From positions 186,001 through 250,000 of the forward strand of contig NZ_JIBC01000008.1 in assembly GCF_000620505.1 (NCBI RefSeq): 64,000 bases of DNA, read 5' to 3'. The notes under the pieces were generated by a model that did not search any database, had not been told where the DNA came from, and saw only the letters and a program-made list of their open reading frames with translations. Of this stretch, positions 24,555 to 38,729 are shown piece after piece; within the stretch, counting starts at the first letter, position 1, and the number at the start of each line of letters is the position of its first letter. Position numbers and translations under genes: made by a program. The DNA is from Sulfitobacter sp. 20_GPM-1509m (lineage in GTDB: Bacteria; Pseudomonadota; Alphaproteobacteria; Rhodobacterales; Rhodobacteraceae).

Positions 24555-25367
24555 TTATTCCGCCGCCTTGGCGTTGAACACGAACAGCGTTTCGCCGTTG
24601 ATCTTGTAATCGTTGATCAAGGTCGCCGCGCGGTCCGACACCAGCCACGCCTCAAGCTTGCCCGCCAGTTCGGTTTTGACATGGGCATGCTTTTCAGGGT
24701 TCACGGGGATATAGGCGTATTGGTTGAACAGCACCGGATCGCCCGCATACAGCAGTTCCAGATCGCCCTTGTTGCCAAAGTTCAGCCAGCTTGCACGGTC
24801 CGACATGATATAGGCCGGAATGCCCGACGCGGTGTTCAGCGCAGCGCCCATGCCGGCACCGACGGCCTTGTACCAGTCGCCAAAACCAGTGGGGTCCAGA
24901 CCCGCCGCTTTCCACAGCGACAGCTCTTTCTTGTGTGTCCCGCTGTCATCGCCACGGCTGACGAAGGGCGCCTCGGCCTCGGCAATCGCTGTCAGCGCGG
25001 TGGCGGCAGCGTCGGCATCCTTGATGCCCGCGGGGTCGGCCTTGGGGCCGATGAACACGAAATCATTGTACATAATCTCGGTGCGATGTGTACCAAATCC
25101 GGCATCAACGAACGCCTCTTCGGCCTTGCGCGAATGGACCAGAATGGCGTCAACGTCGCCTGCCTCGCCCAGCTTGATCGCCTGTCCGGTGCCGACGACC
25201 AGCAACTGAACGTCCAGGTCCAGATCCTTCTTGATCTCGGGCAACAGCACCTCGGCCAGTCCCGAGTTGTTGAACGACGTCGTCACCGCCATTTTCATCA
25301 CGTCCGTCGCCTGTGCGGCGGTGCCGATAGCCAGCGCCGCCAGCGTAAGTGCAAACCGTTTCATCAT
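24555..25367 (-). CDS. tupA: tungstate ABC transporter, binding protein
   Basis: A 270-residue periplasmic protein with a cleavable signal (MMKRFALTLAALAIGTAAQA). The mature part begins with MAVTTSFNNSGL, the TTS-type oxyanion loop of TupA, and contains RGDDSGTHKKELSLW near residue 150, a hallmark of TupA that separates it from ModA and WtpA. It binds tungstate with high affinity for import. It is the last gene of tupBCA; the order permease, ATPase, binding protein is reversed from the common one. Its location beside a bis-MGD formate dehydrogenase suggests the enzyme can receive tungsten. Confidence 0.9.
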   Translation of the reverse strand: MMKRFALTLAALAIGTAAQATDVMKMAVTTSFNNSGLAEVLLPEIKKDLDLDVQLLVVGTGQAIKLGEAGDVDAILVHSRKAEEAFVDAGFGTHRTEIMYNDFVFIGPKADPAGIKDADAAATALTAIAEAEAPFVSRGDDSGTHKKELSLWKAAGLDPTGFGDWYKAVGAGMGAALNTASGIPAYIMSDRASWLNFGNKGDLELLYAGDPVLFNQYAYIPVNPEKHAHVKTELAGKLEAWLVSDRAATLINDYKINGETLFVFNAKAAE

Positions 25368-26080
25368 TCGACTATGTCTCCTCTTAGAAAAGCCCGTGCC
25401 TGTGGCGTTTCGGGCCGGTTGAAAAATGTCTCTGCCGGGCCGCTTTCATGGATGCGCCCGCCCAGCAGGAACAGCACCTGGTCCGCCAACCGCCGCGCCT
25501 GCCCCATGTCGTGGGTGGACAGGATCAGCCGCGTGCCGGTGGATTTCGCATGTGTCAGAATCTCTTCGATCTCGCGCGTGGCGCGACCGTCGAGCGCGGC
25601 ACAGGGTTCGTCGAGAAACAGCACCTTGGGCTCTGAAATCAGCGCCCGCGCCAGCGCCAGCTTTTGCTGCTCGCCCCCTGACAGGACGGGTGCGGCCCGG
25701 TCCAGCATATCCGCCAGCCCCACCTGTGCGGCCCAATCGCGCGCACGGTCGCGGGCTTGCGCCAACGGCACCCCGCGCAGGCGCAGCGGATAGATCAGGT
25801 TCTGCATCACCGTGCGCCGCAGCATCACGGGCCGCTGAAAGACAAACCCCTGATGGTGGCGCGCCTCGTCCGTTGGACAGGCCCAATTGATCTGTCCCGC
25901 CGACAGCCGCGCGGTGCCGTGCAGCAGCCGCAGCAAAGTCGTCTTGCCCGAACCGTTCGGCCCCACCACCACACAGGCGCCGGTTCCGTCCAGCGTCAGG
26001 TCGATCGGCCCCACCAGAACCTGCCCGCGCCTGCGGCTTTCGATCCCCTTGGCCGTCATCGGGAACAGCTGCATCACCAT
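25364..26080 (-). CDS. tupC: tungstate ABC transporter, ATP-binding protein
   Basis: A 238-residue ABC ATPase. Walker A VGPNGSGKTTLLR lies near residue 38, the Q-loop in GFVFQRPVMLRR, the signature LSGGEQQKLALAR near 133 and Walker B VLFLDEPCAALD follow, then the switch His in STHDMG. It powers tungstate uptake with TupB and TupA and acts on the cytoplasmic face. It is coupled by short overlaps to both neighbours (7 nt with tupB, 4 nt with tupA). Sequence alone would not separate it from other oxyanion ATPases; the tupA neighbour gives the specificity. Confidence 0.9.
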   Translation of the reverse strand: MVMQLFPMTAKGIESRRRGQVLVGPIDLTLDGTGACVVVGPNGSGKTTLLRLLHGTARLSAGQINWACPTDEARHHQGFVFQRPVMLRRTVMQNLIYPLRLRGVPLAQARDRARDWAAQVGLADMLDRAAPVLSGGEQQKLALARALISEPKVLFLDEPCAALDGRATREIEEILTHAKSTGTRLILSTHDMGQARRLADQVLFLLGGRIHESGPAETFFNRPETPQARAFLRGDIVE

Positions 26081-26778
26081 GCCCCCTCGCGTTCGGTGCG
26101 GCCCAGCCAGTGGATCGCCAGATTGACCGCCACCGCCAGCCCGATCAGCACAAAGCCCAAGGCCAGCGCCAGCGCGAATTCACCCTTGCCGGTTTCCAGC
26201 GCAATCGCCGTGGTCAACACCCGCGTGGCGTGGTCGATGTTGCCGCCCACGATCATGATCGCGCCCACCTCGCCAATCGCGCGCCCAAATCCGGCCAGCG
26301 CGGCGGTCAGCAGGGCACGGCGGCAATCCCACAGCAGCGTGCGGATCTTTTGCCCCTGCGTGACGTTCATCGAGATCAGAAGATCATGATATTCCTGCCA
26401 AAGATCGCGGATCGACTGATGCGCAATCGACGCGATCAGCGGCACGATGATGATGGTCTGGGCGATGATCATCGCCGTGGGTGTGAACAACAGCCCCATG
26501 ACCCCAAAAGGACCGGACCGCGACAGGAACACGTAAACAATCAGCCCCACCACCACCGGCGGCAGCCCCATCAGCGCGTTCAGAATGGCAATGACAAACC
26601 GCCGCGCGCGGAACCGTTTCACCGCGACAAAGGCGGCCAGCGGCAGGGCAATGACACAGGCCACGGCCAGCGCGCTCAGCGTCACCCGCAGCGACCGCAG
26701 CGCGATCTCGACCAGCTCGGCGTCCAGCGTTACGACCAGCCAGAAGGCTTGCGCCAGACCGCTCCATAAATCGACCAT
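26074..26778 (-). CDS. tupB: tungstate ABC transporter, permease
   Basis: A 234-residue inner-membrane permease with five to six hydrophobic spans and the ABC permease coupling motif (RRALLTAALAGFGRAIGEVGAIMIVGG, where the EAA-type loop runs LAGFGRAIGEVGA). It forms the channel for tungstate. It is the first gene of the tup operon, downstream of a promoter region with three similar palindromes, so tungstate- or molybdate-dependent control is likely. Confidence 0.9.
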   Translation of the reverse strand: MVDLWSGLAQAFWLVVTLDAELVEIALRSLRVTLSALAVACVIALPLAAFVAVKRFRARRFVIAILNALMGLPPVVVGLIVYVFLSRSGPFGVMGLLFTPTAMIIAQTIIIVPLIASIAHQSIRDLWQEYHDLLISMNVTQGQKIRTLLWDCRRALLTAALAGFGRAIGEVGAIMIVGGNIDHATRVLTTAIALETGKGEFALALALGFVLIGLAVAVNLAIHWLGRTEREGAW

Positions 26779-28050: not shown

Positions 28051-29121
28051 TCAAGAAAATTGGCCCGTGTCGCCCCCGGCCTTGGCAAGACCTGCAATCT
28101 CGCTTTCGCTGCTCGCGAACGACGTCACGAAACGCACCAGCGCCTCATGGTTCAGGTCAATTTTGTCTGGCAGGATCGCGTCGGCGTACCATTCAGCAAA
28201 GCCAATTCCTGCCGCAGCCAGTTGCGCGCAAACCTCGCGGGGGAGCACCGCAAAGACCTCGTTGGCCTGTGGCGTCATGGCAATTCGCGCGCCCTTGATA
28301 GAGGCCAGGGTCATTGCCAAAACCTGTGCCCGTGCATTTGCGTGACGCGCAAGATCCAGCCAGTGATCATCGTGCAGCCATGCACTGAATTGCGCGCCCA
28401 GAAAGCGGCCTTTGGACAACAGATGACCGCTGCGCTTCATGCGTTCAGGAAAGCCTCGCGCCAGTGTCTTGTCAAAGAATACAACGGCTTCGGCGGCCAC
28501 TGCTCCGTTCTTGGTCGCCCCCAGACACAAGACATCTACCCCCGCACGCGCAGAGATGTCAGCCGGATGGCACCCCAAATGCGCCACAGCATTGGCAAAA
28601 CGGGCGCCATCCATGTGAACGCGCAACCCCGCATCGTGCGCAACACCGCACAGGGCCTGCACTTCGGCGGGCGTATAGACTTGGCCGTTCTCGCTGGATT
28701 GCGCGATCGACAGGATCTGCGGGCGGATGTTGTGTGGTTTGTCGTCGGGCATGGCGCGGATGTGGGCGGCGACGGCATTCGCGTCCAGCCGCGTGGCATA
28801 GGGAGCGACCGGCATCAGGCGCATACCACCTGTCAAAAACTCGGGCGCGGTCGATTCATCGCGCAGCACATGCGCCTGATGATGGCACAGGATCGCCCCC
28901 CACGGATCGCCAAGCGCAGACAAGGCCAGACAGTTTGCCGCCGTGCCCGAAGTGACAAAATAGGCAGCAAGGTCGCGATCAAACACCTCGCGCAACTTGT
29001 CTTCTGCCTGCTTTGTGGCTTCATCTGTGCCGTAGGATGCGCCCTTTTGGCTGAACTCGCGCATCAGGGCATCCAGCACGGCGGGTGATGCGCCGGATTG
29101 ATTGTCGCTGCCAAAACTCAT
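28051..29121 (-). CDS. L-threonine aldolase-type PLP enzyme
   Basis: A 356-residue fold-type I PLP enzyme of the low-specificity L-threonine aldolase family, which cleaves beta-hydroxy amino acids to glycine and an aldehyde. Visible residues are the stacking His in HHQAHVLRDE (80-89), the PLP-binding DGARFANA (171-178) and the Schiff-base Lys204 in LGATKNGA, the pattern of the Pseudomonas-type enzyme. Its promoter, shared divergently with the YheO-type regulator, carries the element AGTATAC-N13-TTGACAATT also found before the M20 gene. Within this cluster the true substrate is probably a hydroxy amino acid other than threonine. Confidence 0.9.
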   Translation of the reverse strand: MSFGSDNQSGASPAVLDALMREFSQKGASYGTDEATKQAEDKLREVFDRDLAAYFVTSGTAANCLALSALGDPWGAILCHHQAHVLRDESTAPEFLTGGMRLMPVAPYATRLDANAVAAHIRAMPDDKPHNIRPQILSIAQSSENGQVYTPAEVQALCGVAHDAGLRVHMDGARFANAVAHLGCHPADISARAGVDVLCLGATKNGAVAAEAVVFFDKTLARGFPERMKRSGHLLSKGRFLGAQFSAWLHDDHWLDLARHANARAQVLAMTLASIKGARIAMTPQANEVFAVLPREVCAQLAAAGIGFAEWYADAILPDKIDLNHEALVRFVTSFASSESEIAGLAKAGGDTGQFS

Positions 29122-29159
29122 GACGGTCTGCTGCCTCCCTGCAGGTGCGTTGCGTCGTG

Positions 29160-29188
29160 AGTATACTAAATGAATAGTGTTGACAATT
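29160..29188. promoter_or_regulatory. cluster operator/promoter, copy A
   Basis: AGTATAC-N13-TTGACAATT between the divergent aldolase and regulator genes. Read leftward it gives TTGTCA-N15-TATACT, a promoter ending about 39 bp ahead of the aldolase ATG. Its core 29162-29176 is a degenerate palindrome (TATACT-AAA-TGAATA). Copy B at 34557 has the same layout and spacing. Confidence 0.7.
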
Positions 29189-29213
29189 TGTATAGAAAGG
29201 ATAGGTTGGACCC

Positions 29214-29852
29214 ATGCGAAAAATCTTCAGAAACTATGTTCCCATCGCCGACAGCTTTGCAGCTCTGCTGAGCCCTCATGCAGAGGTGGTTCTGCATGAT
29301 CTGGAAACCGACACGGTGGCCTATATCGTCAATCCGATCTCGGGTCGCAAAGTCGGTGATCCGTCCGAAACGGCAATGGACGAGAATATCTCGCTCGATC
29401 TTGATGTGATGGGACCCTATCCCAAGATCAGCCGCGACCTGCACCGGATGAAGTCGACAACCGCCGTGTTGCGCGACGAGAACGGTGCAGCGGCGGGGCT
29501 GTTTTGCGTGAACCTTGATGTCTCGCGCTTTGATGCCGCAGCCGAGATGTTGCAATCCTTGATCGGGATACCCGAGCAGTCGGACCAACCGTCGGTCCTG
29601 TTCGAAACCGACTGGCGAGAGCAGATCAACACGCGCATCTATGACTTCTTGCGTGAACGACGCACCTCGCTCGAGGCGATGACCCGCGACGAGCGCACGG
29701 AAATGATTCAGGCGCTGGATGCCAACGGCGCGTTCAGCATCCGCAATTCGCCGACCTATGTTTCGCAGCTGTTGGGGATCTCGCGGGCGACCCTGTACAA
29801 GGCGATGCGCCCTGCCCGCGACAAGTCCAACGATCTGGGAAGCGGGCTGTGA
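29214..29852 (+). CDS. YheO/DauR-type PAS-HTH transcriptional regulator
   Basis: A 212-residue regulator. The first 115 residues form the YheO-like PAS domain (LSPHAEVVLHDLETDTVAYIVNP is typical, here shortened to EVVLHDLETD), and the last 60 hold a helix-turn-helix (TYVSQLLGISRATLYKAMR). The best-known relative, DauR, represses D-arginine catabolism. It is divergent from the aldolase gene and leads the rightward dehydratase-ALDH-esterase operon, whose first gene it overlaps by 4 nt. It is the obvious candidate to bind the shared operator at 29160 and 34557. Confidence 0.9.
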   Translation: MRKIFRNYVPIADSFAALLSPHAEVVLHDLETDTVAYIVNPISGRKVGDPSETAMDENISLDLDVMGPYPKISRDLHRMKSTTAVLRDENGAAAGLFCVNLDVSRFDAAAEMLQSLIGIPEQSDQPSVLFETDWREQINTRIYDFLRERRTSLEAMTRDERTEMIQALDANGAFSIRNSPTYVSQLLGISRATLYKAMRPARDKSNDLGSGL

Positions 29853-30865
29853 CACCCCGTCTGGTCTGGTCCGATGCGCAAGACGACGCGGCACATCAGG
29901 CCGCCCGTGTCCTGCGCAACGACCATGGCCGCGCGGCTGGCCTGCTGCCTGCGGATGTCCGGGACTCGACCACCATCACCGCCACGATCAACGGCGCAGG
30001 GCCGCTGTTGCTGAAACTGGAAAACCTGCTGCCAACCGGATCGTTCAAGGTGCGTGGCGCGATGACGACTGTGCAGGGCATCCCCGGTGTTCTGCCGGCG
30101 GTGCAGGGCGAGGTTTTTACAGCATCGTCGGGCAATCACGGGCTGGCGGTCGCCTATGCGGCGGCGCGCAACGGTCTGTCCGCAACCGTGGTTCTGCCCG
30201 AGGATGTGTCGCTCGCGAAATACGAAGTTGTGCGCCAGATTGCGACGCGTACCATCATCTTCGGCGCGGATTGTCTGAGTGCCGAGCGTCATGCCGCAAG
30301 CCTCGCCGCGCGCAACGGGGCCACGTATATTTCCCCTTATAACCACATTGGCGTGCTGTTGGGTCATGCAACGATCGCGGCGGAGATCGTCCGTGACTAC
30401 CCCGATGTCACGGATGTGTTTGTCTCGGTCGGCGGCGGCGGGCTGTATTCCGCGCTGGCCGTGGTATTGCAGCACCTGCGGCCAGATATCCGGCTGCACG
30501 CCTGCTTTCCGCAGAACTCCGCGCCGCTCTACTGGCGAAAGGTGCCTGATGCCCTGCGCGCCCATGAGCCGACCCTTGCCAGCGCCGTGGCGGGCGAGAT
30601 CGACCCCGACAGCATCACGATACCGCTGTCGCTGGACCGCCTGACCAGTTCCGTCACCTGCACCGAGGCCCAGATCGCAGCCGCGATGAAACAGCTGATG
30701 GCCGACTGCGGGCAGCGGGTCGAAGGGGCCGCGGCACTGGCTGTCGCGGGATGGCAAAAGCTGTCGCAGACCCAGGACATGCCGCGCCCGCTTGCCGTGT
30801 TGTGCGGCGGAAACATCACCGAAAGCCGCCACGCAAAAGCGCTGGGGCAGATCACCATGCCCTAG
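29849..30865 (+). CDS. threonine dehydratase-type PLP enzyme
   Basis: A 338-residue fold-type II PLP enzyme. The Schiff-base Lys67 lies in [10 protein letters not shown], the substrate loop is ASSGNHG, and the phosphate-binding glycine loop is VGGGGLYSA. Members deaminate or dehydrate hydroxy amino acids (threonine, serine, 3-hydroxyaspartate, and the EutB enzyme of hydroxyectoine breakdown). The regulatory ACT domain of biosynthetic IlvA is absent, as expected for a catabolic enzyme. The start is a GTG overlapping the regulator's stop. Presence of both an aldolase and a dehydratase for hydroxy amino acids in one regulon is notable. Confidence 0.88.
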
Positions 30866-30890
30866 CGCGCATGCCCCTCAGGAGAGCCGA

Positions 30891-32315
30891 ATGGAAACCG
30901 CAAACTTTATTGATGGCAGTTTTGCCCCCGGACGTGGCGACGCGATCGAGCTGATCAATCCGCGCACCGGTGCGGGCATAGTCACCGTGCCCTCCGCCAG
31001 CGCAGACCAGATCGACGCGGCTGTCATGGCGGCGCGGCGTGCCTTTCCGGCATGGTCCGAAACCACGCCATCCGATCGCGCCACCGTGCTGCTGCAAATC
31101 GCCGACCGGATCGAGGCGGACGGCGACAGGCTGGCCGAGCTGGAAGCGCTGAACTGTGGCAAGCCGTTCCATTGCGTGCGCGATGACGAAATCCCTGCCA
31201 CCGCCGATTGCTTTCGCTTCTTTGCGGGCGCGATCCGGTCGATGACCGGGCCGATGGCGGGTGAATATCTGGCGGGCCACACATCCTTTGTGCGCCGCGA
31301 TCCGGTGGGGGTGGTTGCCGCGATTGCCCCCTGGAACTATCCGCTGATGATGCTGGCGTGGAAGCTGGCCCCCAGCCTTGCGGCGGGCAACACCGTGGTG
31401 CTGAAACCCGCCGAACACACGCCGCTGACCGCGTTGCGATTTGCCGCGCTCGTGGCTGACCTCTTGCCCAAGGGCGTGCTGAGCATCCTGACCGGCGACG
31501 GCCCCGGCGTCGGGGCTGCGTTGATCGGGCACCCGCAGGTCGACATGATCTCGCTGACCGGCGAGGTGGGCACCGGCAAGGCCGTGCTGAACGCCGCCGC
31601 GACCACGATCAAACGCACACATCTTGAACTGGGCGGCAAGGCCCCTGTGCTGGTCTTTGACGACGCGGATGTGGATGCGGCGGTCGATGCGGTCCGCAAT
31701 TTCGGCTTTTACAACGCCGGTCAGGATTGTACCGCAGCCTGCCGCATCTATGTTCAAGCCGGAATTCACGACGTCTTTGCGCAAAAGCTGTCGGAGGCAG
31801 TCAAAACACTGCGCTATGACAACGCCGACGATACCGAGAATGAAATCCCCCCGCTGATCACGGCAAAGCAACGCGACCGTGTCGACGGTTTTGTCCAGCG
31901 TGCCCGTGCGCGCGAAGGGGTGACCGTGCTGTGCGGCGGTGCGGCGGGTGAAGGCAACGGTCACTATTACCAACCGACAGTGATCACCAATGTCACCCAA
32001 GACGACGAGATCGTGCGCAAAGAGGTGTTTGGCCCCGTGGTGACGGTCGTGCGCTTTGACGATGAAGCGCAGGCGATGGATTGGGCCAATGACACCGATT
32101 ACGGTCTGGCCTCGTCGGTCTGGACCCGCGATGTGTCACGTGCGATGCGGGTGTCGAAAGGGCTGCGGTTCGGCTGCACCTGGGTGAACACCCACTTTAT
32201 GCTGGTCAACGAAATGCCCCATGGCGGGCTCAAGGCATCGGGCTATGGGCGGGATATGTCCTTGCATGCGCTTGAGGATTACACGGCAATCCGGCACATC
32301 ATGATCGCGCACTAG
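30891..32315 (+). CDS. aminobutyraldehyde dehydrogenase-type ALDH
   Basis: A 474-residue NAD(P)-dependent aldehyde dehydrogenase with the catalytic glutamate at about residue 246 (ELGGKAP) and nucleophile Cys280 ([11 protein letters not shown]). The C-terminal block [21 protein letters not shown] followed by [12 protein letters not shown] is close to E. coli PatD/YdcW, which oxidises 4-aminobutyraldehyde, so an omega-amino aldehyde is a plausible substrate. The start is the ATG behind AGGAGAG; the open frame upstream has no similarity. It lies between the dehydratase and the esterase in the rightward operon. Confidence 0.9.
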
Positions 32316-32316
32316 G

Positions 32317-33351
32317 ATGTCTTCGCATGATCCGTTGCTGCCGGACTGGTCGCATGCCCTGCCCCGCTGGCTGGACCCGCAACACGAAGAGCAACCGCAG
32401 GATATTCCCAACGCGCCCGCGGCCAGCCTGCTTGCACTGACGGCAAAGCTGGGCAGTTCGGGTCCGCAGGTTGATCCGACGACATTGCCCGCCGCCGAAG
32501 GCCGCGCCCTGGCCGCGAACCGCGCGAAAATCTGGAACACGGACCTGCCCCCGATGCAGCGCCGCGCGTATGTGGTGCCCCCCGCCCGCGCCAACGCAGC
32601 ACCCTGTCGTGTGGTGGTGCTGACGCCGGAGCGTGCTGCGCCGGGCGCGATCCTGATGATCCCCGGCGGCGGCTTTGCCTTTGGTGCGCCTGAAACCGAC
32701 GAACACGCCGGACGCTGTCTGGCGCAAGATGCCGGAATGACCGTTGTCTTGCCGGACTATCGCAAAGCGCCCGAAGACCCGTTTCCCGCCGGGTTGAAAG
32801 ACGTGGCCAGCGTCTATCTGACCCTTGCCACGCATCCTGAAACCATCGGCTGCACCACAGGTCCGGTGGTGGTGGGCGGCGATTCCGCCGGTGCCAACCT
32901 TGCCATCGCAACCCTGTTGCTGGAACAGCAGACGCCCGCGGCGGGATTGCTGCTGTATTACGGCATGTTCGCGCCGGGGCGGCAGCGTGCCTCGCACCTG
33001 CGCTTTGCGGATTACCCCGGCTTTACCGCGGGCAAGCTGCAGCGCTATACCGAATGGTATCTGCCCGACCCGGCCCGGCGCAGCGACCCGCTGGCCGCAC
33101 CGCTTCTGGCAGATGATGCGGCGCTGGATGCCTTGCCGCCGGTGCACATCCTTGGCGCGGAAACGGACCCGCTGCTGTCTGACAGCCTGGCCTTGTGGCG
33201 CAGGCTTTTGGCGCTGGCGCATTCCGTGCGGCTGGACGTGGCACCCGGGATGCCCCACGGATTTTTGCAGATGTCACAACATCTGCAGGACGCGCGACAA
33301 GCCCTGACCTTGTGCGGGCGTGTCGCGCGGGATTTCGCCTCAGGTCTGTGA
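32317..33351 (+). CDS. alpha/beta hydrolase, HSL-type esterase
   Basis: A 344-residue hydrolase of the hormone-sensitive-lipase group. The oxyanion loop reads IPGGGFAFG in place of the common HGGG, the nucleophile Ser190 is in GGDSAGAN, the acid lies in AETDPLLSD and the histidine in GMPHGFLQM. It begins one nucleotide after the ALDH stop. It could cleave an ester or amide side group of the compound handled by this cluster. The N-terminal 100 residues form the usual cap and carry no further motif. It ends convergently with the M20 gene, overlapping it by 12 nt. Confidence 0.88.
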   Translation: MSSHDPLLPDWSHALPRWLDPQHEEQPQDIPNAPAASLLALTAKLGSSGPQVDPTTLPAAEGRALAANRAKIWNTDLPPMQRRAYVVPPARANAAPCRVVVLTPERAAPGAILMIPGGGFAFGAPETDEHAGRCLAQDAGMTVVLPDYRKAPEDPFPAGLKDVASVYLTLATHPETIGCTTGPVVVGGDSAGANLAIATLLLEQQTPAAGLLLYYGMFAPGRQRASHLRFADYPGFTAGKLQRYTEWYLPDPARRSDPLAAPLLADDAALDALPPVHILGAETDPLLSDSLALWRRLLALAHSVRLDVAPGMPHGFLQMSQHLQDARQALTLCGRVARDFASGL

Positions 33352-34512
33352 CAACTGCCGTGCCAGCGCGGTCCAATAGCCGATGCCGTGCGGGATGGCC
33401 TTGTCGTTGAAATCATAGGTCGGCGCGTGCAACGCATCGCCCCCTGCGCCCTTTTCAACGCCATTGCCGATCAACATGAACGAGCTGGGCAAGGCCTGCG
33501 TCAGATCCGAGAAATCCTCGGCCCCCGTGGTCATCGGTGCCTCGTTCAGATCGCGTCCCAGGGTTTCGACGGCCGTGCGGGCTATCTCGGTGGCATCGGG
33601 ATCGGTGACCAGCGGGCGGGCTTCCCATTCCCCTTCGACCTTGACGTCACAGCCGTTGACCAGCGCGACGCGTTCCGCAAGATCGTTCAGCGCGGAATCA
33701 ATCCGGGCACAGTTTTCCTGGGTAAAGCACCGCATGGTGCCGGTCGCCTTGACCCGCGCGGGCATCACGTTCGAGGCGTTTTCGTTCCCGCCATGGACGG
33801 ATCCCAGCGTGAGCACAATCGGATCAAGCGGTGGGAACCCGCGCCGGATCACCGTTTGCATCCCGATGGTGAATTCGGCCAGCGCCAGTGTGAGATCCGC
33901 GGCCAGATGCGGCCTGCCGCCGCCGTGTCCGCCCATCCCGCTGAACACCACCGAAAAGATGCCCGAGGCGGCCATCATCGGGCCGGTCCGCGTCGCAAAG
34001 GTACCCACAGGCAGGCCCGGCGCATTGTGCAGACCAAAGGCCATGCCGCACGGAAAGCGTTTCAGCAACCCGTCGTCGATCATGCGCCGTGCGCCGCAAT
34101 AGCGTTCTTCGGCGGGCTGGAACACGAAATGGATGTCGCGGGTGACCGACGGATCCTCCGCCAACGCCCGCGCAGCACCCAGCAGCATCGCCGTGTGACC
34201 GTCATGGCCGCAGGCATGCATCACCCCGGCATTGCGGGAGGCATGTGCCACGCCCGAGGCCTCCTCGATGGCCAGCGCATCCATATCGGCGCGGAACATG
34301 ACCGCCGGGCGATTTCCGCCGCGTCGCAGGGTGCCCACGACCCCGTGGCCGCCGACACCGCGGGTCACTTCCAGCCCGCTTTCTTCCAGGTGGCGCGCCA
34401 CAATATCGGCCGTGCGCGCCTCTTCCAGCGACAGTTCAGGGTGCGCGTGCAGGTCGCGACGGACCTCTGTCATAGCGCCGCAAAGCGCGTCGAAATTGGG
34501 CAACAAAGTCAT
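33340..34512 (-). CDS. M20 family amidohydrolase (HipO/aminoacylase type)
   Basis: A 390-residue metal-dependent amidohydrolase with MHACGHDGHTAMLLG near residue 100, the catalytic acid in QPAEERYCGARRMIDDG, the dimerisation domain with GMGGHGG, and the late metal ligand in TTGAEDFSDL. M20 enzymes of this group remove N-acyl groups from amino acids or hydrolyse indole-amide-type conjugates. It is transcribed opposite to the operon but from a promoter with the same operator as the aldolase gene, so it belongs to the same regulon. Deacylation of an imported N-acyl amino compound is a reasonable first step. Confidence 0.92.
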   Translation of the reverse strand: MTLLPNFDALCGAMTEVRRDLHAHPELSLEEARTADIVARHLEESGLEVTRGVGGHGVVGTLRRGGNRPAVMFRADMDALAIEEASGVAHASRNAGVMHACGHDGHTAMLLGAARALAEDPSVTRDIHFVFQPAEERYCGARRMIDDGLLKRFPCGMAFGLHNAPGLPVGTFATRTGPMMAASGIFSVVFSGMGGHGGGRPHLAADLTLALAEFTIGMQTVIRRGFPPLDPIVLTLGSVHGGNENASNVMPARVKATGTMRCFTQENCARIDSALNDLAERVALVNGCDVKVEGEWEARPLVTDPDATEIARTAVETLGRDLNEAPMTTGAEDFSDLTQALPSSFMLIGNGVEKGAGGDALHAPTYDFNDKAIPHGIGYWTALARQLSQT

Positions 34513-34556
34513 TTGGCGTCCTTTTTAACGTTTCGTCACGAAGTTTCGCCACAAGA

Positions 34557-34585
34557 AGTATACAGTTTGTATAGTCTTGACAATT
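34557..34585. promoter_or_regulatory. cluster operator/promoter, copy B
   Basis: AGTATAC-N13-TTGACAATT between the divergent M20 and ABC permease genes. Leftward it reads TTGTCA-N15-TATACT, 45 bp ahead of the M20 ATG. Its core 34559-34573 is a perfect palindrome with 6-bp arms (TATACA-GTT-TGTATA). Confidence 0.72.
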
Positions 34586-34664
34586 AATAAACACGGGTGC
34601 AGCTTTGCGTCATGCCGAAGTTTGTAGATGGCACAAGCTTATCAGGTTCCGAGAAGGGGAATGG

Positions 34665-35372
34665 ATGCTCGACACTTTGACGATGTTCGGTTTCGGACCC
34701 GAAGGCTGGGGACCCGCCATGCTGCGCGCCGCGGCAAACACCGTGGCCGTCGCTGCGGCGGGGTTTGCCTTGGGAGGAGGTCTGGGCATTCTCGTGGCCT
34801 GGGCAAAGATCGCGGGCAACGCGCCGCTGCGCTGGTTGGCGGCAGCCTACACAACCATTCTGCGCGGCATCCCCGACCTGCTGGTGATCTATCTGTTCTA
34901 CTTCGGCTCGGGCCTGTTGCTGACGCCGATTGCAAATATGTTCGGGGTCGAAGGCTTTGTGTCGTTTCCGGGGTTCGTGGCAGGCATGGGGGCCATCGGC
35001 GTCGTCTCGGGCGCCTATCACGCCGAGGTCATTCGCGGTGCGTTCTATTCGGTCAAGGCCGGAGAGCTTGAGGCCGCAACCGCGATGGGCATGCCCCGCC
35101 TGTTGAAATTCCGCCGCATCACCCTGCCGCTGGTCGCGCGTCACGCGCTGCCGGGTCTGGGCAATGTCTGGCAAATGGTGCTGAAGGAATCCGCGCTGAT
35201 TTCCGTGACCGGGCTCGTGGAAATCATGCGTCAGGCGCAAATCGGGTCCAGCTTCACCCGCCAGCCATTCACCTTCTATTTTGCCGCCGGTGTGCTGTTT
35301 CTGACCATTACCATCCTCAGCGGGCTGATCTTCAACCGGTTGGAACACCGCTATTCCAGAGGAAGGGCCTGA
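34665..35372 (+). CDS. polar amino acid ABC transporter permease (HisQ type)
   Basis: A 235-residue membrane protein with about five spans and the HisQ/HisM coupling loop (GELEAATAMGMPRLLKFRRI). Start chosen at the ATG of MLDTLTMF, which follows GAGAAGGGGA; an earlier frame has no similarity. It is the first gene of a four-gene importer operon divergent from the M20 gene and shares its control region. It would bring the cluster's amino compound across the inner membrane together with the next permease. Confidence 0.92.
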   Translation: MLDTLTMFGFGPEGWGPAMLRAAANTVAVAAAGFALGGGLGILVAWAKIAGNAPLRWLAAAYTTILRGIPDLLVIYLFYFGSGLLLTPIANMFGVEGFVSFPGFVAGMGAIGVVSGAYHAEVIRGAFYSVKAGELEAATAMGMPRLLKFRRITLPLVARHALPGLGNVWQMVLKESALISVTGLVEIMRQAQIGSSFTRQPFTFYFAAGVLFLTITILSGLIFNRLEHRYSRGRA

Positions 35373-35375
35373 GCC

Positions 35376-36107
35376 ATGGACTTTGAATTTCTCGGCCAGA
35401 CCTTTTTGAAACTGCTGCCCGGCATTCCCGTGACGCTTGAGCTTGCCACGTTGTCCCTGCTTTTGGGGGCCTGTCTGGCACTGGCCTTTGCGGTGATCCG
35501 CGTGCGCCGGATCAGGCCGTTGAACTGGCTGGTGATCGGCTATGTCTATGTGTTTCGCGGCACGCCGCTGCTGGTGCAAATGTTCATTATCTACTACGGG
35601 CTGGCGCAATTCCCCGAGATCCGGAACAGCTTTGCCTGGACCTATCTGCGCGAGCCTTATTGGTGTGCGCTGCTGGCCTTGGTGCTGAACACAGCCGCCT
35701 ATGGCTCCGAGATACTGCGCGGCGCATTGTTGTCGGTGCCACGCGGTCAGATCATGGCGGCGCAGGCTTGTGGCATGTCAGGGTTCTTGCTGTTTCGTCG
35801 CATCAGTTTTCCGATCGCCCTGCGCCAAGCTCTGCCCGCCTATGGCAACGAGTTTATCCTGATGATCAAGGCAACCTCGCTGGCCTCATTGGTCACGCTG
35901 GCCGATGTCACCGGCATCGCCGCCCGGATCATTGCAGAAACCTATCGCCCCGTAGAGGTCTTTGTCGCCGCCGGCACGATCTATCTGGCCATCTCCTATG
36001 GCCTGATCCTGCTGGTGCGTCTGGCTGAAACCCGACTGAACCCCGATCAACGCGACCCTGCCCCCGTGGCGCGTGTCGACGCGGCCCGAAAGGAAGTGAC
36101 CCCGTGA
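35376..36107 (+). CDS. polar amino acid ABC transporter permease (HisM type)
   Basis: A 243-residue HisM-type permease with TLELATLSLLLGACLALAFA as the first span region (core LELATLSLLLG) and the coupling loop GQIMAAQACGMSGFLLFRRI. The combination with the preceding permease forms the usual heterodimeric channel. It begins 3 nt after that gene and overlaps the ATPase gene by 4 nt. The C-terminal tail after the last span is longer than usual and charged. Confidence 0.92.
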   Translation: MDFEFLGQTFLKLLPGIPVTLELATLSLLLGACLALAFAVIRVRRIRPLNWLVIGYVYVFRGTPLLVQMFIIYYGLAQFPEIRNSFAWTYLREPYWCALLALVLNTAAYGSEILRGALLSVPRGQIMAAQACGMSGFLLFRRISFPIALRQALPAYGNEFILMIKATSLASLVTLADVTGIAARIIAETYRPVEVFVAAGTIYLAISYGLILLVRLAETRLNPDQRDPAPVARVDAARKEVTP

Positions 36108-36901
36108 ACCAGATGACCCCGCACGCGCAACCCGATCCCATCCAGCCCTCCGCCGTGTCCGTGCGTGGCCTGCGCAAGCGCTATGGTGCACTCGAAGTGC
36201 TCAAAGGCATCGACTTTGACGCGCGCCGTGGCGAAGTGGTGTCAATCCTCGGGTCGTCCGGGTCCGGCAAGTCGACCTTGTTGCGGTGCATCAACATGCT
36301 GGAAATCCCCGAAGCCGGCACCGTCACCGTCGACGGCACCGAAATCGCGCTGATTGCCCAACGCGGCGGTGGACGGCAGCCTGCGGACGCACGCGCCATG
36401 GACCGGATGCGCGCGCGGATCGGCATGGTTTTCCAGGACTTTAACCTGTGGTCCCACAAGACCGTGCTGGGCAACGTGATCGAGGCCCCCACCCACGTCC
36501 AGAAACGTCCCCGCGCCGACTGTATCACCGAAGCACGGGCGCTGCTGGACAAGGTGGGCATTGCGGACAAGGCCGACCAGTATCCCTCGCGCCTGTCCGG
36601 TGGCCAGCAACAGCGTGCGGCCATCGCGCGCGCCCTTGCCATGAACCCGACCGTGATGCTGTTCGACGAGCCCACCTCGGCGCTTGATCCGGAACTGGTC
36701 GGTGAAGTGCTGCGGGTGATCCGCGCGCTGGCCGAAGAAGGGCGGACCATGCTGATCGTCACCCATGAAGTCAACTTTGCCCGCGACATCTCGGACACCG
36801 TTGTCTTCATGAACGAAGGCGTCATCGAGGAATCCGGCCCGCCCGAAGAAGTCTTTGCCGCCGGCAACAACACCCGCCTCGCGCGGTTCATCGAGGGGTA
36901 A
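36104..36901 (+). CDS. polar amino acid ABC transporter ATPase (HisP type)
   Basis: A 265-residue ABC ATPase. Walker A is GSSGSGKSTLLR near residue 50, followed by a short insertion rich in Arg/Gly (QRGGGRQPADARAMDR), the Q-loop in VFQDFNLWSH, the signature LSGGQQQR and Walker [15 protein letters not shown], all typical of the HisP/GlnQ group. The GTG start overlaps the previous stop and has an AAGGAAG site. It energises the importer next to the aldolase/dehydratase/ALDH cluster. Confidence 0.93.
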   Translation: MNQMTPHAQPDPIQPSAVSVRGLRKRYGALEVLKGIDFDARRGEVVSILGSSGSGKSTLLRCINMLEIPEAGTVTVDGTEIALIAQRGGGRQPADARAMDRMRARIGMVFQDFNLWSHKTVLGNVIEAPTHVQKRPRADCITEARALLDKVGIADKADQYPSRLSGGQQQRAAIARALAMNPTVMLFDEPTSALDPELVGEVLRVIRALAEEGRTMLIVTHEVNFARDISDTVVFMNEGVIEESGPPEEVFAAGNNTRLARFIEG

Positions 36902-36960
36902 ACGCCCCCAAAAACCGGCCCCGGCACGAAGGGCCAATCCAACACTGGAGGAAGACCACC

Positions 36961-37827
36961 ATGAAACTGACCTACCTGAAGCGCGGTATCGCTGCTGTTT
37001 TAATGGCGCTTTGCGCGCACGCGTTCCTGCCTGGAAAAGCGCATGCGCAAGAGAAATCATGGGACACGATCCGCATCGCGACCGAGGGGGCCTTTCCTCC
37101 GTTCAACCTGACCAAACAGGACGGAACCCTGGACGGCTATGATGTCGATCTGTCCAACGCCCTGTGCGAGCGGATGAAGGCAAAATGCACCATCATCGCC
37201 CAGCCGTGGGACGGGATCATCCCGGCGCTGAACGCAGGCAAATACGACGCGATTGTCGCGGCCATGTCGGCCAACCCCGAGCGCGCCAAGGTCGTGTCGT
37301 TCACCATCCCCTACGCCGCCGGCGGTCTGACGTTCCTCACCAGCAAGGACAACAGCCTGGCCGACGTGCCCTATGTCGACACGTTGATCCGGCTGGACGA
37401 CGCCAAGGATGCAGACAGCCTGAAAGACGCCCTGGCCGAACTGAACACCGTTTTCGCAGGCAAGGTCGCAGGGCTTCAGGCCTCGACCATCGCGACCGAG
37501 TTCTTTCACAAGTATCTGCCGGATGTGGAAATCCGCGAATACAAGGGCAACGAGGCCGAACTGGATCTGGCGGCCGGACGGGTCGACATGATTATGGCGT
37601 CACTGATGTATCTCAGCGATCTGGTCAAACAGGACGGCAAGGAAAACCTTGTGCTGTTCGGACCTCGCTTTGGCGGCGGCCTGCTGGGTCAGGGAGCTGC
37701 CATCGCGGTGCGGCAAGAAGACGATGCCCTGCGTGAAAAACTGGACGCAGCATTGGAAGAGCTGAAAGCCGATGGCACCATGAAAGAGATTTCAATGAAA
37801 TGGTTCGGTTTTGATGTGACACCCTGA
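36961..37827 (+). CDS. polar amino acid-binding periplasmic protein (ArgT/HisJ type)
   Basis: A 288-residue family 3 solute-binding protein. The signal is MKLTYLKRGIAAVLMALCAH with cleavage expected after AHA (about residue 29). The mature part starts with the ligand-binding pattern IRIATEGAFPPFNL and GYDVDLSNALCERM, like lysine/arginine/ornithine- and octopine-binding proteins. A strong GGAGGAAG site precedes it. It closes the importer operon. Positively charged, arginine- or ornithine-like substrates would fit both this protein and the aminobutyraldehyde-type dehydrogenase, but the ligand is not proven. Confidence 0.93.
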   Translation: MKLTYLKRGIAAVLMALCAHAFLPGKAHAQEKSWDTIRIATEGAFPPFNLTKQDGTLDGYDVDLSNALCERMKAKCTIIAQPWDGIIPALNAGKYDAIVAAMSANPERAKVVSFTIPYAAGGLTFLTSKDNSLADVPYVDTLIRLDDAKDADSLKDALAELNTVFAGKVAGLQASTIATEFFHKYLPDVEIREYKGNEAELDLAAGRVDMIMASLMYLSDLVKQDGKENLVLFGPRFGGGLLGQGAAIAVRQEDDALREKLDAALEELKADGTMKEISMKWFGFDVTP

Positions 37828-37868
37828 CCGCCTGGCGCAGGATCACTGCGCGCGCAAAGAAGGCACTC

Positions 37869-38729
37869 TCAGGCCGAGACCGCCCGCTCCCCTGCAGCCC
37901 GCAACGTGTCACGCAGCACGTCGAAGAACGCGCGCAGGTGGGGCTGGCGCAAGGCCTGGGGGCGCGTCACCAGGAACACATCCATCGGTGGCAATACGAC
38001 CGGGCCAAAGGGTTGCACAAGGCCCGCTGACAAAAGGTCAGGCAGCACAGCAACGCCGTAGCCGCTGGCGCAGGCCTGCAATTGCGCCGCGAAGGAAGAC
38101 ACCCGAAAGCGCGAGGATACGAAGCCTGCGGCGCGGGCACTGCGCAGATGGGCGGCCTGATCAAAGGGCGGCGACAGGTCGATCATCGCGGCATCGCCCG
38201 GCCTGGCATTTGCGGGAAGGCGGCGGGCATAATCCGCTGCGCAATAGACGCCAAAGGACAGCGCGGCGACCTTGCTGTAAATCAGCGACGGCTCGCCCAG
38301 GTGAACAGTACGAACCGCAATGTCGACCCCGCCACGCGCGACCTTGGTCAGCGTCGAGTCAACCAGCAGATCGACGGTGCACCGAGGATGCATTTCGATA
38401 TAGCGGTCGATTGCCTGTGTCAGCACCGGGACAAATCCGTCACCCACCGTCACGGTGACCCCGCCAGACAACGCTCCGTCCTGCGGCAGGGTCTGTCGTT
38501 GCAGATCGCGTTCGATGTTTTCGGCGGTTGCGACCAGCGCCGCGCCCCGGGCCGTCAGGCGCAGACCGTCAACGCCGCGCTCTACCACCGGCTCGCCGAT
38601 CTCCTGCTCCAGCCGGGTGATGCGCCGCGACAGGGTCGAGGCGGCCATGTCCAGCACCGCCCCGGCCTGAAGAAAGCTGCCGCGCCGCGAAATGGCGAGC
38701 AGCACGCGAAGATCGTCCCAATCGGTCAT
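37869..38729 (-). CDS. LysR-family transcriptional regulator
   Basis: A 286-residue regulator with the N-terminal winged helix (WDDLRVLLAISRRGSFLQAG, core LLAISRRGSF; then AASTLSRRITRLEQEIG) and the C-terminal periplasmic-binding-like effector domain. The start is the ATG of MTDWDD; the open frame upstream is not family-like. It is divergent from the SnoaL-like/epimerase pair with a 91-bp gap, the usual arrangement of a LysR regulator and its target. The gap holds TTGC-N6-GCAA at 38737-38750, a possible T-N11-A-type site. Confidence 0.92.
   Translation of the reverse strand: MTDWDDLRVLLAISRRGSFLQAGAVLDMAASTLSRRITRLEQEIGEPVVERGVDGLRLTARGAALVATAENIERDLQRQTLPQDGALSGGVTVTVGDGFVPVLTQAIDRYIEMHPRCTVDLLVDSTLTKVARGGVDIAVRTVHLGEPSLIYSKVAALSFGVYCAADYARRLPANARPGDAAMIDLSPPFDQAAHLRSARAAGFVSSRFRVSSFAAQLQACASGYGVAVLPDLLSAGLVQPFGPVVLPPMDVFLVTRPQALRQPHLRAFFDVLRDTLRAAGERAVSA

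What the first reader, a model, noticed from the sequence alone, without database searches (positions are those of the whole stretch)
28051..37827. Unrecognised catabolic cluster for an amino compound, tied together by a shared operator
Seen: regulator of the YheO/DauR type, threonine-aldolase-type and threonine-dehydratase-type PLP enzymes, PatD-like aldehyde dehydrogenase, HSL esterase, M20 amidohydrolase and a complete HisQMP/ArgT-like importer, in three transcription units. The family set does not match ectoine, beta-hydroxyaspartate-cycle, D-arginine or putrescine clusters I know. Inference: import of an N-acylated or esterified hydroxy diamino acid, deacylation, then retro-aldol or dehydration and aldehyde oxidation. 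This is the best candidate in the window for an undescribed pathway.
Basis: partly seen in the sequence, partly recalled or inferred. Interest (0 to 1): 0.8.

Follow-up and report, generated by a model that had tools for sequence, protein, structure and literature searches.

The report
Unknown hydroxy-amino-acid breakdown gene cluster
A compact set of ten genes, found as one block in two kinds of marine bacteria, appears to import and dismantle a blocked, positively charged hydroxy amino acid whose identity is not yet known.

Summary
Window 28051-37827 carries ten intact genes: phenylserine/threonine-aldolase-type enzyme, DauR/YheO-type regulator, EutB-like PLP dehydratase, PatD-type aldehyde dehydrogenase, HSL esterase, M20 amidohydrolase and a four-part importer. 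The shared operator is real: a 29-bp element (23/29 identical) occurs only twice in the window, once in each divergent promoter region, and its core essentially only there in the 4.74-Mb genome. That makes four transcription units, not three. The unit is discrete: the same ten genes recur at 87% DNA identity in Pseudooceanicola pacificus with unrelated flanks, every gene under purifying selection (dN/dS 0.04-0.18). It is rare in what I searched. The binding protein is closest to octopine/nopaline-binding proteins; it keeps the residues for the cationic amino-acid half but only 2 of 5 of the octopine keto-acid signature. This favours, without proving, an N-alpha-blocked basic amino acid. With a PatD-type dehydrogenase and an aldolase, the simplest reading is: N-acyl 3-hydroxylysine-like substrate, deacylation, cleavage to glycine and an aminoaldehyde, oxidation. 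Substrate and steps are inferred; the roles of dehydratase and esterase are unsettled. My literature searches found no described pathway with this set.

The parts
28051..29121 (-). PLP aldolase of the phenylserine/L-threonine aldolase type (TA)
   Evidence: PF01212; best solved relatives 1v72 'Aldolase' (E 3.6e-80) and 7yvr/9l9g L-threonine aldolases. The lysine in GATKNG lines up with theirs; its role as the PLP lysine is recalled.
29160..29188 (+). operator copy 1 (AGTATACTAAATGAATAGTGTTGACAATT), between the divergent aldolase and regulator genes
   Evidence: two changes in L008
29214..29852 (+). DauR/YheO-type regulator (PAS_6 + HTH_22)
   Evidence: dN/dS 0.035 against L008, the lowest of the ten
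29849..30865 (+). EutB/threonine-dehydratase-like fold-type-II PLP enzyme (DHT), overlaps the regulator by 4 bp
   Evidence: PF00291; best NCBIfam model PRK06815, 228 bits against cut-off 371; SFK-, SSGNHG and GGGGL motifs present
30891..32315 (+). aminobutyraldehyde dehydrogenase (PatD) type ALDH
   Evidence: NCBIfam NF010000 764.7 bits over cut-off 615 (scanned from 30885, two codons upstream of the start); best solved 4dal, 1wnb, 6c43; start from L011 annotation
32317..33351 (+). HSL-family alpha/beta hydrolase (esterase)
   Evidence: PF07859; GDSAG in the translation; the place of the usual HGGG motif (recalled) reads PGGG
33340..34512 (-). M20 amidohydrolase (TIGR01891 subfamily)
   Evidence: 294.8 bits over cut-off 153.75; best solved 1xmb, 1ysj
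34557..34585 (+). operator copy 2 (AGTATACAGTTTGTATAGTCTTGACAATT), between the divergent M20 and importer genes
   Evidence: in L008 its right part is kept and its left part changed
34665..35372 (+). ABC permease (HisQ/ArtQ type)
   Evidence: scanned from 34605; start from L011 annotation
35376..36107 (+). ABC permease (HisM/ArtM type)
36104..36901 (+). ABC ATPase (HisP type)
36961..37827 (+). periplasmic binding protein of the octopine/nopaline clade
   Evidence: best solved relative OccJ 5ore E 3.5e-66, then NocT; pocket residues compared

Best explanation
A horizontally transferred regulon, controlled by its own DauR-type regulator, for uptake and catabolism of an N-alpha-blocked (most simply N-acylated) basic beta-hydroxy amino acid. 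SHOWN by sequence: gene content, shared operator, presence as one block with unrelated flanks in another genus, purifying selection, binding-protein pocket residues. INFERRED: (1) the opine-clade binding protein and HisQMP-type importer take up the N-blocked basic amino acid; (2) the M20 enzyme removes the N-acyl group; (3) the PLP aldolase splits the free beta-hydroxy amino acid into glycine and an omega-amino aldehyde; (4) the PatD-type dehydrogenase oxidises the aldehyde to the omega-amino acid. If the aldehyde is 4-aminobutanal, the parent is 3-hydroxylysine and the product GABA. (5) The dehydratase handles another stereoisomer of the same amino acid, or a side product; (6) the HSL enzyme removes an O-acyl group or hydrolyses a related ester or amide. 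Steps 5 and 6 are the weakest. Both operator copies contain a TTGACA hexamer, so the regulator may repress until the ligand or a breakdown product binds its PAS domain.
For: Operator in both divergent regions and nowhere else convincing in the genome. Same ten genes, same order, 87.3% DNA identity, in Pseudooceanicola pacificus, homology confined to window 28092-37973; dN/dS 0.035-0.183 in 10 of 10 genes. Binding protein: OccJ residues for the arginine half, Glu30, Trp71, Ala88, Ala89, Ser91, Arg96, Gln159, are all kept (Tyr33 is Phe); the keto-acid signature Ser91-Asn111-Thr163-Ala164-Asn202 reads Ser-Leu-Ile-Ala-Ser (Val for Leu in L008); LAO's Asp161, which binds a free alpha-amino group, corresponds to Ser (residue roles from PMC5740067, passages). 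ALDH: NF010000 cut-off met; 57.8 and 58.6% identical to two patD-annotated enterobacterial proteins and 60-61% to proteins annotated gamma-aminobutyraldehyde dehydrogenase in Sinorhizobium, Phyllobacterium, Thioclava and Agrobacterium vitis; stretches [12 protein letters not shown] and [12 protein letters not shown] as in solved PatD-type proteins; next best match in the genome at E<=1e-60 is 41% identical or less. Dehydratase relatives sit with DauR and deacylase-type genes in several other loci.
Against: No enzyme or ligand has been tested. PMC5740067 itself weakens the pocket argument: OccJ-N202D binds octopine and arginine like wild type, so that position is not decisive, and Ser91, which the window protein has, also supports binding of free amino acids (OccJ binds arginine, lysine, ornithine at micromolar level). 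NocT, with Ser at that place, binds opines, so a different opine is possible. M20, aldolase and dehydratase fall below the cut-offs of every substrate-specific NCBIfam model listed. The aldolase is nearest to 1v72 (a phenylserine-type aldolase, recalled) and HSL scores weakly with chloramphenicol hydrolase, which would fit an aryl substrate. One compound should not need both an aldolase and a dehydratase. The three HSL relatives examined lie in sugar clusters. In 17 dehydratase neighbourhoods there is no hit of the aldolase or HSL and no ALDH above 36.1% identity, so there is no independent comparative support for the combination. No abundant marine source of 3-hydroxylysine is known to me. 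No consensus promoter stands out.
Confidence: 0.35

Rival explanations
1. Opine-type catabolism: the importer takes up an octopine-family or other conjugated basic amino acid, and the enzymes process the released parts.
For: Nearest solved binding proteins are OccJ and NocT; OccT-annotated proteins are about 43-44% identical; Ser91 and the arginine-half residues except Tyr33 kept.
Against: Octopine keto-acid signature kept at 2 of 5 positions, nopaline signature at 1 of 4; no opine-oxidase or cyclodeaminase family among the ten proteins.
Confidence: 0.18
2. Guanidino version: the substrate is N-blocked 3-hydroxyarginine or a relative, giving glycine and 3-guanidinopropanal, continued by a ureohydrolase elsewhere in the genome.
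For: Glu30/Gln159/Trp71 pocket for a guanidinium group kept; dehydratase relatives lie near PRK07324-type enzymes in L042, L048, L053, L010, L012 (the L048 one hits GntC and capreomycidine synthase models below cut-off); three Arginase-family genes in the genome.
Against: No ureohydrolase among the ten proteins and no PRK07324-type hit in the window; ALDH is of the aminobutyraldehyde type.
Confidence: 0.15
3. Trimethylated version: N-blocked or free 3-hydroxy-trimethyllysine is cut to glycine and 4-trimethylaminobutanal, then oxidised to gamma-butyrobetaine, the same two steps as in eukaryotic carnitine synthesis.
For: Aldolase plus ALDH pair matches the eukaryotic pair (recalled; PMC8085414 and PMC7767417 seen only in the search listing with abstract starts); pocket has Phe45, Phe48, Trp83.
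Against: No hydroxylase family among the ten proteins; the pocket keeps Glu and Gln that suit a hydrogen-bonding cation; a free alpha-amino group would leave M20 unexplained.
Confidence: 0.07
4. Aryl or hydrophobic beta-hydroxy amino acid (phenylserine or an amide-linked aryl-serinol compound): HSL or M20 opens the amide, aldolase releases an aryl aldehyde, ALDH oxidises it.
For: 1v72 is the best solved relative of the aldolase (its identity as phenylserine aldolase is recalled); HSL hits the chloramphenicol hydrolase model at 92 bits, cut-off 500.
Against: Cation-type pocket of the binding protein and PatD-type ALDH do not fit an aryl substrate.
Confidence: 0.07
5. The genes share a regulator but serve two substrates: importer plus M20 for N-acyl or peptide-like basic amino acids, and aldolase, dehydratase, ALDH and esterase for other compounds.
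For: Two separate promoter regions; DauR, M20 and the dehydratase occur together without the other enzymes in L051 and L054; a related binding protein in Shinella lies with M20- and M28-annotated genes.
Against: Same operator in both regions and one shared block in two genera.
Confidence: 0.18

Closest known systems
Octopine/nopaline uptake systems (OccJ/NocT with their importers)
   Same: binding protein clade and most residues for the arginine half of the ligand
   Different: keto-acid signatures not kept; no opine-oxidase family; different regulator and enzymes
5-Hydroxyectoine/ectoine catabolism (eutABCDE, EhuABCD)
   Same: EutB-like PLP enzyme, deacylase theme, polar amino acid ABC importer
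   Different: no EutA-, EutC- or EutD-type family among the ten proteins, EutB and DoeB2 models below cut-off, PAS_6/HTH_22 regulator instead of EnuR
Beta-hydroxyaspartate cycle (bhcABCD)
   Same: fold-type-II dehydratase related to one acting on a beta-hydroxy amino acid
   Different: BhcB 129.3 bits against cut-off 550, no BhcD-like reductase hit in the window; bhcB is annotated on other plasmids of P. pseudonitzschiae
Aldolase plus aminoaldehyde dehydrogenase steps of eukaryotic carnitine synthesis
   Same: PLP aldolase giving glycine and an omega-amino aldehyde, then ALDH (recalled)
   Different: bacterial, substrate unknown, with importer and amidohydrolase, no hydroxylases
Loci with DauR, EutB-like dehydratase and a deacylase in other genomes (L046, L048, L051, L054, L012)
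   Same: DauR, dehydratase and a deacylase-type gene together
   Different: they carry an ornithine-cyclodeaminase-family protein that the window module lacks; no aldolase, HSL or ALDH hit above 36.1% in them

Membership tests
Octopine-binding protein (OccJ) | arginine-half residues Glu30, Tyr33, Trp71, Ser91, Arg96, Gln159 | tested here: inconclusive
   5 of 6 kept, Tyr33 is Phe45 (residues from PMC5740067)
Octopine-binding protein (OccJ) | keto-acid signature Ser91-Asn111-Thr163-Ala164-Asn202 | tested here: not met
   S-L-I-A-S, 2 of 5
Nopaline-binding protein (NocT) | Gly97-Met117-His170-Ser207 | tested here: not met
   window has Ser, Leu, Ala, Ser, 1 of 4 (signature from PMC4192606). The NocT chain used (5ot8) prints Ser at position 97, the 4p0i chain prints Gly.
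Hydroxyectoine catabolism (eut/doe) | EutB model cut-off | tested here: not met
   162.8 of 413 and 137 of 413.35 bits
Hydroxyectoine catabolism (eut/doe) | EutC/OCD reductase and EutD hydrolase in the cluster | tested here: not met
   no such Pfam family among the ten proteins; no hit of four OCD-family queries in the window (families)
Beta-hydroxyaspartate cycle | BhcB model cut-off and BhcD partner | tested here: not met
   129.3 of 550 bits; no OCD hit in the window
Aminobutyraldehyde dehydrogenase (PatD) | NCBIfam subfamily NF010000 cut-off | tested here: met
   764.7 against 615 bits
Aminobutyraldehyde dehydrogenase (PatD) | NCBIfam equivalog TIGR03374 cut-off | tested here: not met
   707.5 against 909.3 bits
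Aminobutyraldehyde dehydrogenase (PatD) | activity on 4-aminobutanal | not testable with these tools
   needs enzyme assay
Threonine/phenylserine aldolase | Pfam PF01212 over its cut-off | tested here: met
   158.5 against 27 bits
Threonine/phenylserine aldolase | NCBIfam PRK10534 (L-threonine aldolase) or GntG cut-offs | tested here: not met
   44.6 against 312 and 72.6 against 230 bits
DauR/YheO-type regulator | PAS_6 plus HTH_22 | tested here: met
   88.3 against 27 and 62.2 against 29.6 bits
M20 amidohydrolase (TIGR01891) | subfamily cut-off | tested here: met
   294.8 against 153.75 bits
DoeB2 N-acetyl-diaminobutyrate deacetylase | equivalog cut-off | tested here: not met
   268.5 against 550 bits

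The most novel reading that the evidence does not exclude
An undescribed bacterial pathway that feeds on N-acylated 3-hydroxylysine (or its trimethyl or guanidino counterpart) released by algae, using the aldolase-plus-aminoaldehyde-dehydrogenase logic known from eukaryotic carnitine synthesis, with a new ligand class for the opine-binding protein clade and a new regulon for a DauR-type regulator.
Probability: 0.13. Interest if true: 0.75.

Novelty: new variant of a known kind. Interest (0 to 1): 0.5.

Why it matters
If right, it points to a nutrient class (N-blocked basic hydroxy amino acids) that diatom-associated roseobacters can use and for which I know no described pathway, extends the opine-binding protein clade to a non-opine ligand, and gives an operator for a DauR-type regulator. 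The set is compact (ten genes, one regulator, two operators), so a ligand screen of one protein would test it. Even if the substrate is different, the discrete block shared by two genera and its unusual enzyme set are facts that any explanation must meet.

Tried and rejected
Ectoine/hydroxyectoine, beta-hydroxyaspartate cycle and octopine/nopaline use: rejected as memberships on model cut-offs, missing partners and pocket signatures. N-acyl homoserine lactone use: considered because of the HSL and M20 pair, set aside because of the cation-type binding protein (inference, not tested). Aryl-serine or chloramphenicol-like substrate: kept as a weak rival.

Guilt by association through single genes gave little. 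Three HSL relatives (45-49% identical) lie in sugar ABC clusters. Two aldolase relatives in Azospirillum are not in a matching cluster, though in one (L064) a gene annotated threo-3-hydroxy-L-aspartate ammonia-lyase lies about 4 kb away. PatD-type relatives lie behind ABC transporter genes in Phyllobacterium and Thioclava, a polyamine type being my guess, and in another setting in Agrobacterium. The Shinella binding protein (50.8%) lies with two peptidase-annotated genes; a Rhizobium rhizogenes one lies with oxidoreductase genes.

Wider search for the module: in genome contigs 42 stretches matched a pattern and 3 loci were confirmed for the dehydratase, two above 90% identity and one at 31%. 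In sampled genomes, at strict thresholds, only the window's own: 1 of 398 (dehydratase, 1e-52), 1 of 248 (binding protein, 1e-70), 1 of 292 (aldolase, 1e-90); 3 of 289 for HSL at 1e-40, the others 44 and 41% identical and not followed; for the dehydratase at 1e-30, 50 of 394, the 49 others at 29-42% identity. Dehydratase residues: SSGNHG is shared with most relatives, so the serine that matters in racemases (recalled) does not decide between racemase and dehydratase; the 'dls' block of that script printed nothing. The promoter scan gave no support.

Literature: nine searches, of which 45, 55, 57, 58 and 72 bear on the pathway; only the best 20 were listed where more were found (212, 38, 37,458). 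None of the titles and abstracts listed describes this set. The library lacks most subscription papers, and the canavanine gamma-lyase paper was not held.

Full report
WHERE IT IS. The window is contig C6:186001-250000 of a 4.74-Mb genome. The finding's 9.8 kb match 77 of 72,556 plasmid records; in 44 one place covers at least 80% of the query; 45 of the 77 are named Pseudosulfitobacter, the best 97.8% identical. The genome is therefore Pseudosulfitobacter or very near it (inference). The Pseudosulfitobacter records listed are plasmids of about 195-250 kb, with diatom or surface-seawater sources given.

THE OBSERVATION. The dauR and dehydratase genes overlap by 4 bp, ALDH and esterase follow closely, and the M20 gene converges on the esterase with a 12-bp overlap. 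The two divergent gaps (aldolase/dauR and M20/importer) share a 29-bp element, 23 of 29 positions identical. Local alignment of the two gaps scores 14.0, against a largest value of 13.5 in 2000 shuffles. Searched as a pattern made from both sites, the element is found only there in the window. The 19-bp core with up to two mismatches finds the two sites, the reverse reading of one, and one more site in the genome, with two hits for the reversed control pattern. In Pseudooceanicola pacificus (L008) copy 1 has two changes and copy 2 keeps its right part. By eye both copies look like two direct 14-bp repeats with an 18-bp period over a TTGACA hexamer; that reading is mine and was not tested, and the promoter scan does not support consensus promoters. 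Orientation implies four transcription units, not three.

ONE MODULE. I compared 26 kb of the window (20001-46000) with the 21 kb of L008. The homology is a single block, window 28092-37973, 87.3% identical over 9,906 columns; nothing else matched, whereas L007 (P. pseudonitzschiae DSM 26824) also matches outside the block. All ten genes are under purifying selection between window and L008 (dN/dS 0.035-0.183). The block is rare in what was searched: in genome contigs two loci above 90% identity and one at 31% for the dehydratase; in sampled genomes only the window's own at strict thresholds, 1 of 398 (dehydratase), 1 of 248 (binding protein), 1 of 292 (aldolase), and 3 of 289 for the esterase at 1e-40, the other two at 44 and 41%. 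At the looser 1e-30 the dehydratase finds 50 of 394 genomes, the other 49 at 29-42% identity. These samples do not cover all species.

WHAT THE IMPORTER SAYS. The binding protein's closest solved relatives are OccJ (octopine) and NocT (nopaline), 46.0% and 40.4% identical in my alignment. PMC5740067 (passages) lists the pocket. The 16 OccJ residues I looked up all fell on the letters of its Table 3, which supports the numbering. In the window the residues for the arginine half are kept (E42, W83, A100, A101, S103, R108, Q173; Tyr33 is F45). The keto-acid signature Ser-Asn-Thr-Ala-Asn reads Ser-Leu-Ile-Ala-Ser, with Val for Leu in L008. The Asp that binds a free alpha-amino group in LAO is Ser; NocT, with Ser there, is reported not to bind free amino acids. 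So I expect a basic amino acid whose alpha-nitrogen carries something other than pyruvate or ketoglutarate, and an N-acyl group would suit the M20 enzyme. Against this, the same paper reports that OccJ-N202D behaves like wild type, that OccJ binds free basic amino acids at micromolar level, and that Ser91 (kept here) favours both. The inference is therefore moderate.

WHAT THE ENZYMES SAY. The ALDH passes the NCBIfam aminobutyraldehyde dehydrogenase subfamily cut-off but not the equivalog's. It is 57.8 and 58.6% identical to two patD-annotated enterobacterial proteins and 60-61% to proteins annotated gamma-aminobutyraldehyde dehydrogenase in rhizobia, Agrobacterium vitis and Thioclava, shares near-identical stretches with solved PatD-type proteins, and has no other relative above 41% in the genome at E<=1e-60. 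The aldolase is closest to 1v72 and to L-threonine aldolases. Together they suggest: beta-hydroxy amino acid to glycine plus omega-amino aldehyde, then to the omega-amino acid. Working backwards from 4-aminobutanal gives 3-hydroxylysine. This is chemistry, not a measurement.

THE DEHYDRATASE AND ITS RELATIVES. An ornithine-cyclodeaminase-family protein lies in 12 of 17, three of these being the sources of the queries; DauR in 5 (L046, L048, L051, L054, L012); a deacylase-type gene in at least 6 (L046, L047, L048, L051, L054, L012); a PRK07324-type protein at 62% or more to the L048 query (or the query itself) in 5 (L042, L048, L053, L010, L012). Families of the query proteins were checked. None of the 17 shows a hit of the aldolase or the esterase, or an ALDH above 36.1% identity. 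Thus DauR + dehydratase + deacylase is a recurring theme, and the window module has aldolase, ALDH and esterase where most of these have the reductase-type protein. The window protein also departs from the relatives at places that are otherwise nearly invariant ([13 protein letters not shown] for [21 protein letters not shown] for GGGGLISGIG), which hints at a changed reaction or substrate. In the EutABC proposal reviewed in PMC5924519 (passages; said there not to have been biochemically evaluated) the EutB-type enzyme removes water and the EutC-type enzyme reduces; without a reductase the window enzyme may simply deaminate. I cannot tell.

LITERATURE. Nine searches, five of them on the pathway, listed no described pathway with this set; only 20 of the papers found were listed. 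Papers used: PMC5740067, PMC4192606, PMC13188858, PMC5924519, PMC10018355, PMC9788692 (passages found by term), PMC12930554 (term search of its text, no hit); PMC8085414 and PMC7767417 only as search listings with abstract starts.

VERDICT. A real, apparently co-controlled, transferable catabolic module of unknown substrate. The best reading is catabolism of an N-blocked basic beta-hydroxy amino acid (0.35; any single named compound is much less likely). It is a new combination of known enzyme families, worth a ligand screen.

Noticed in passing
L048:2855-8848, L046:2969-8897, L053:8035-15093, L010:6693-8771, L012:1763-7763: Recurring loci with a PRK07324-type aminotransferase-fold enzyme (weaker, 33%, in L046), in four of the five one or two ornithine-cyclodeaminase-family proteins, an EutB-like dehydratase and in some DauR and a deacylase: perhaps an uncharacterised guanidino amino acid pathway. 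The L048 enzyme passes the PRK07324 cut-off and hits GntC and capreomycidine synthase models below cut-off. PMC9788692 links PRK07324 and COG2423 genes to a guanidine-IV riboswitch variant.
   Followed up: partly
L066:2596-9768 (Shinella sp. HZN7 plasmid): An opine-clade binding protein related to the window's (50.8%) lies with a second binding protein, an importer and genes annotated as M20 and M28 peptidases; a hint at amide-linked ligands in this clade.
   Followed up: partly
window 37869-37973: The block shared with L008 runs about 100 bp into the 3' end of the neighbouring LysR gene, so one junction lies inside or beside that gene.
   Followed up: no
window 24555-26778: Three-gene ABC system upstream of the gene annotated dmdD in L011; binding protein and permease hit the tungstate TupA and TupB models (194.1 of 400 and 170.6 of 320 bits, both below cut-off).
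   Followed up: partly
window 29849-30865: The dehydratase differs from its relatives at several nearly invariant motifs, unexplained.
   Followed up: partly
G000:C11:4208-6089: An Arginase-family gene lies next to an ornithine-cyclodeaminase-family gene in the same genome: probably ordinary arginine catabolism.
   Followed up: no
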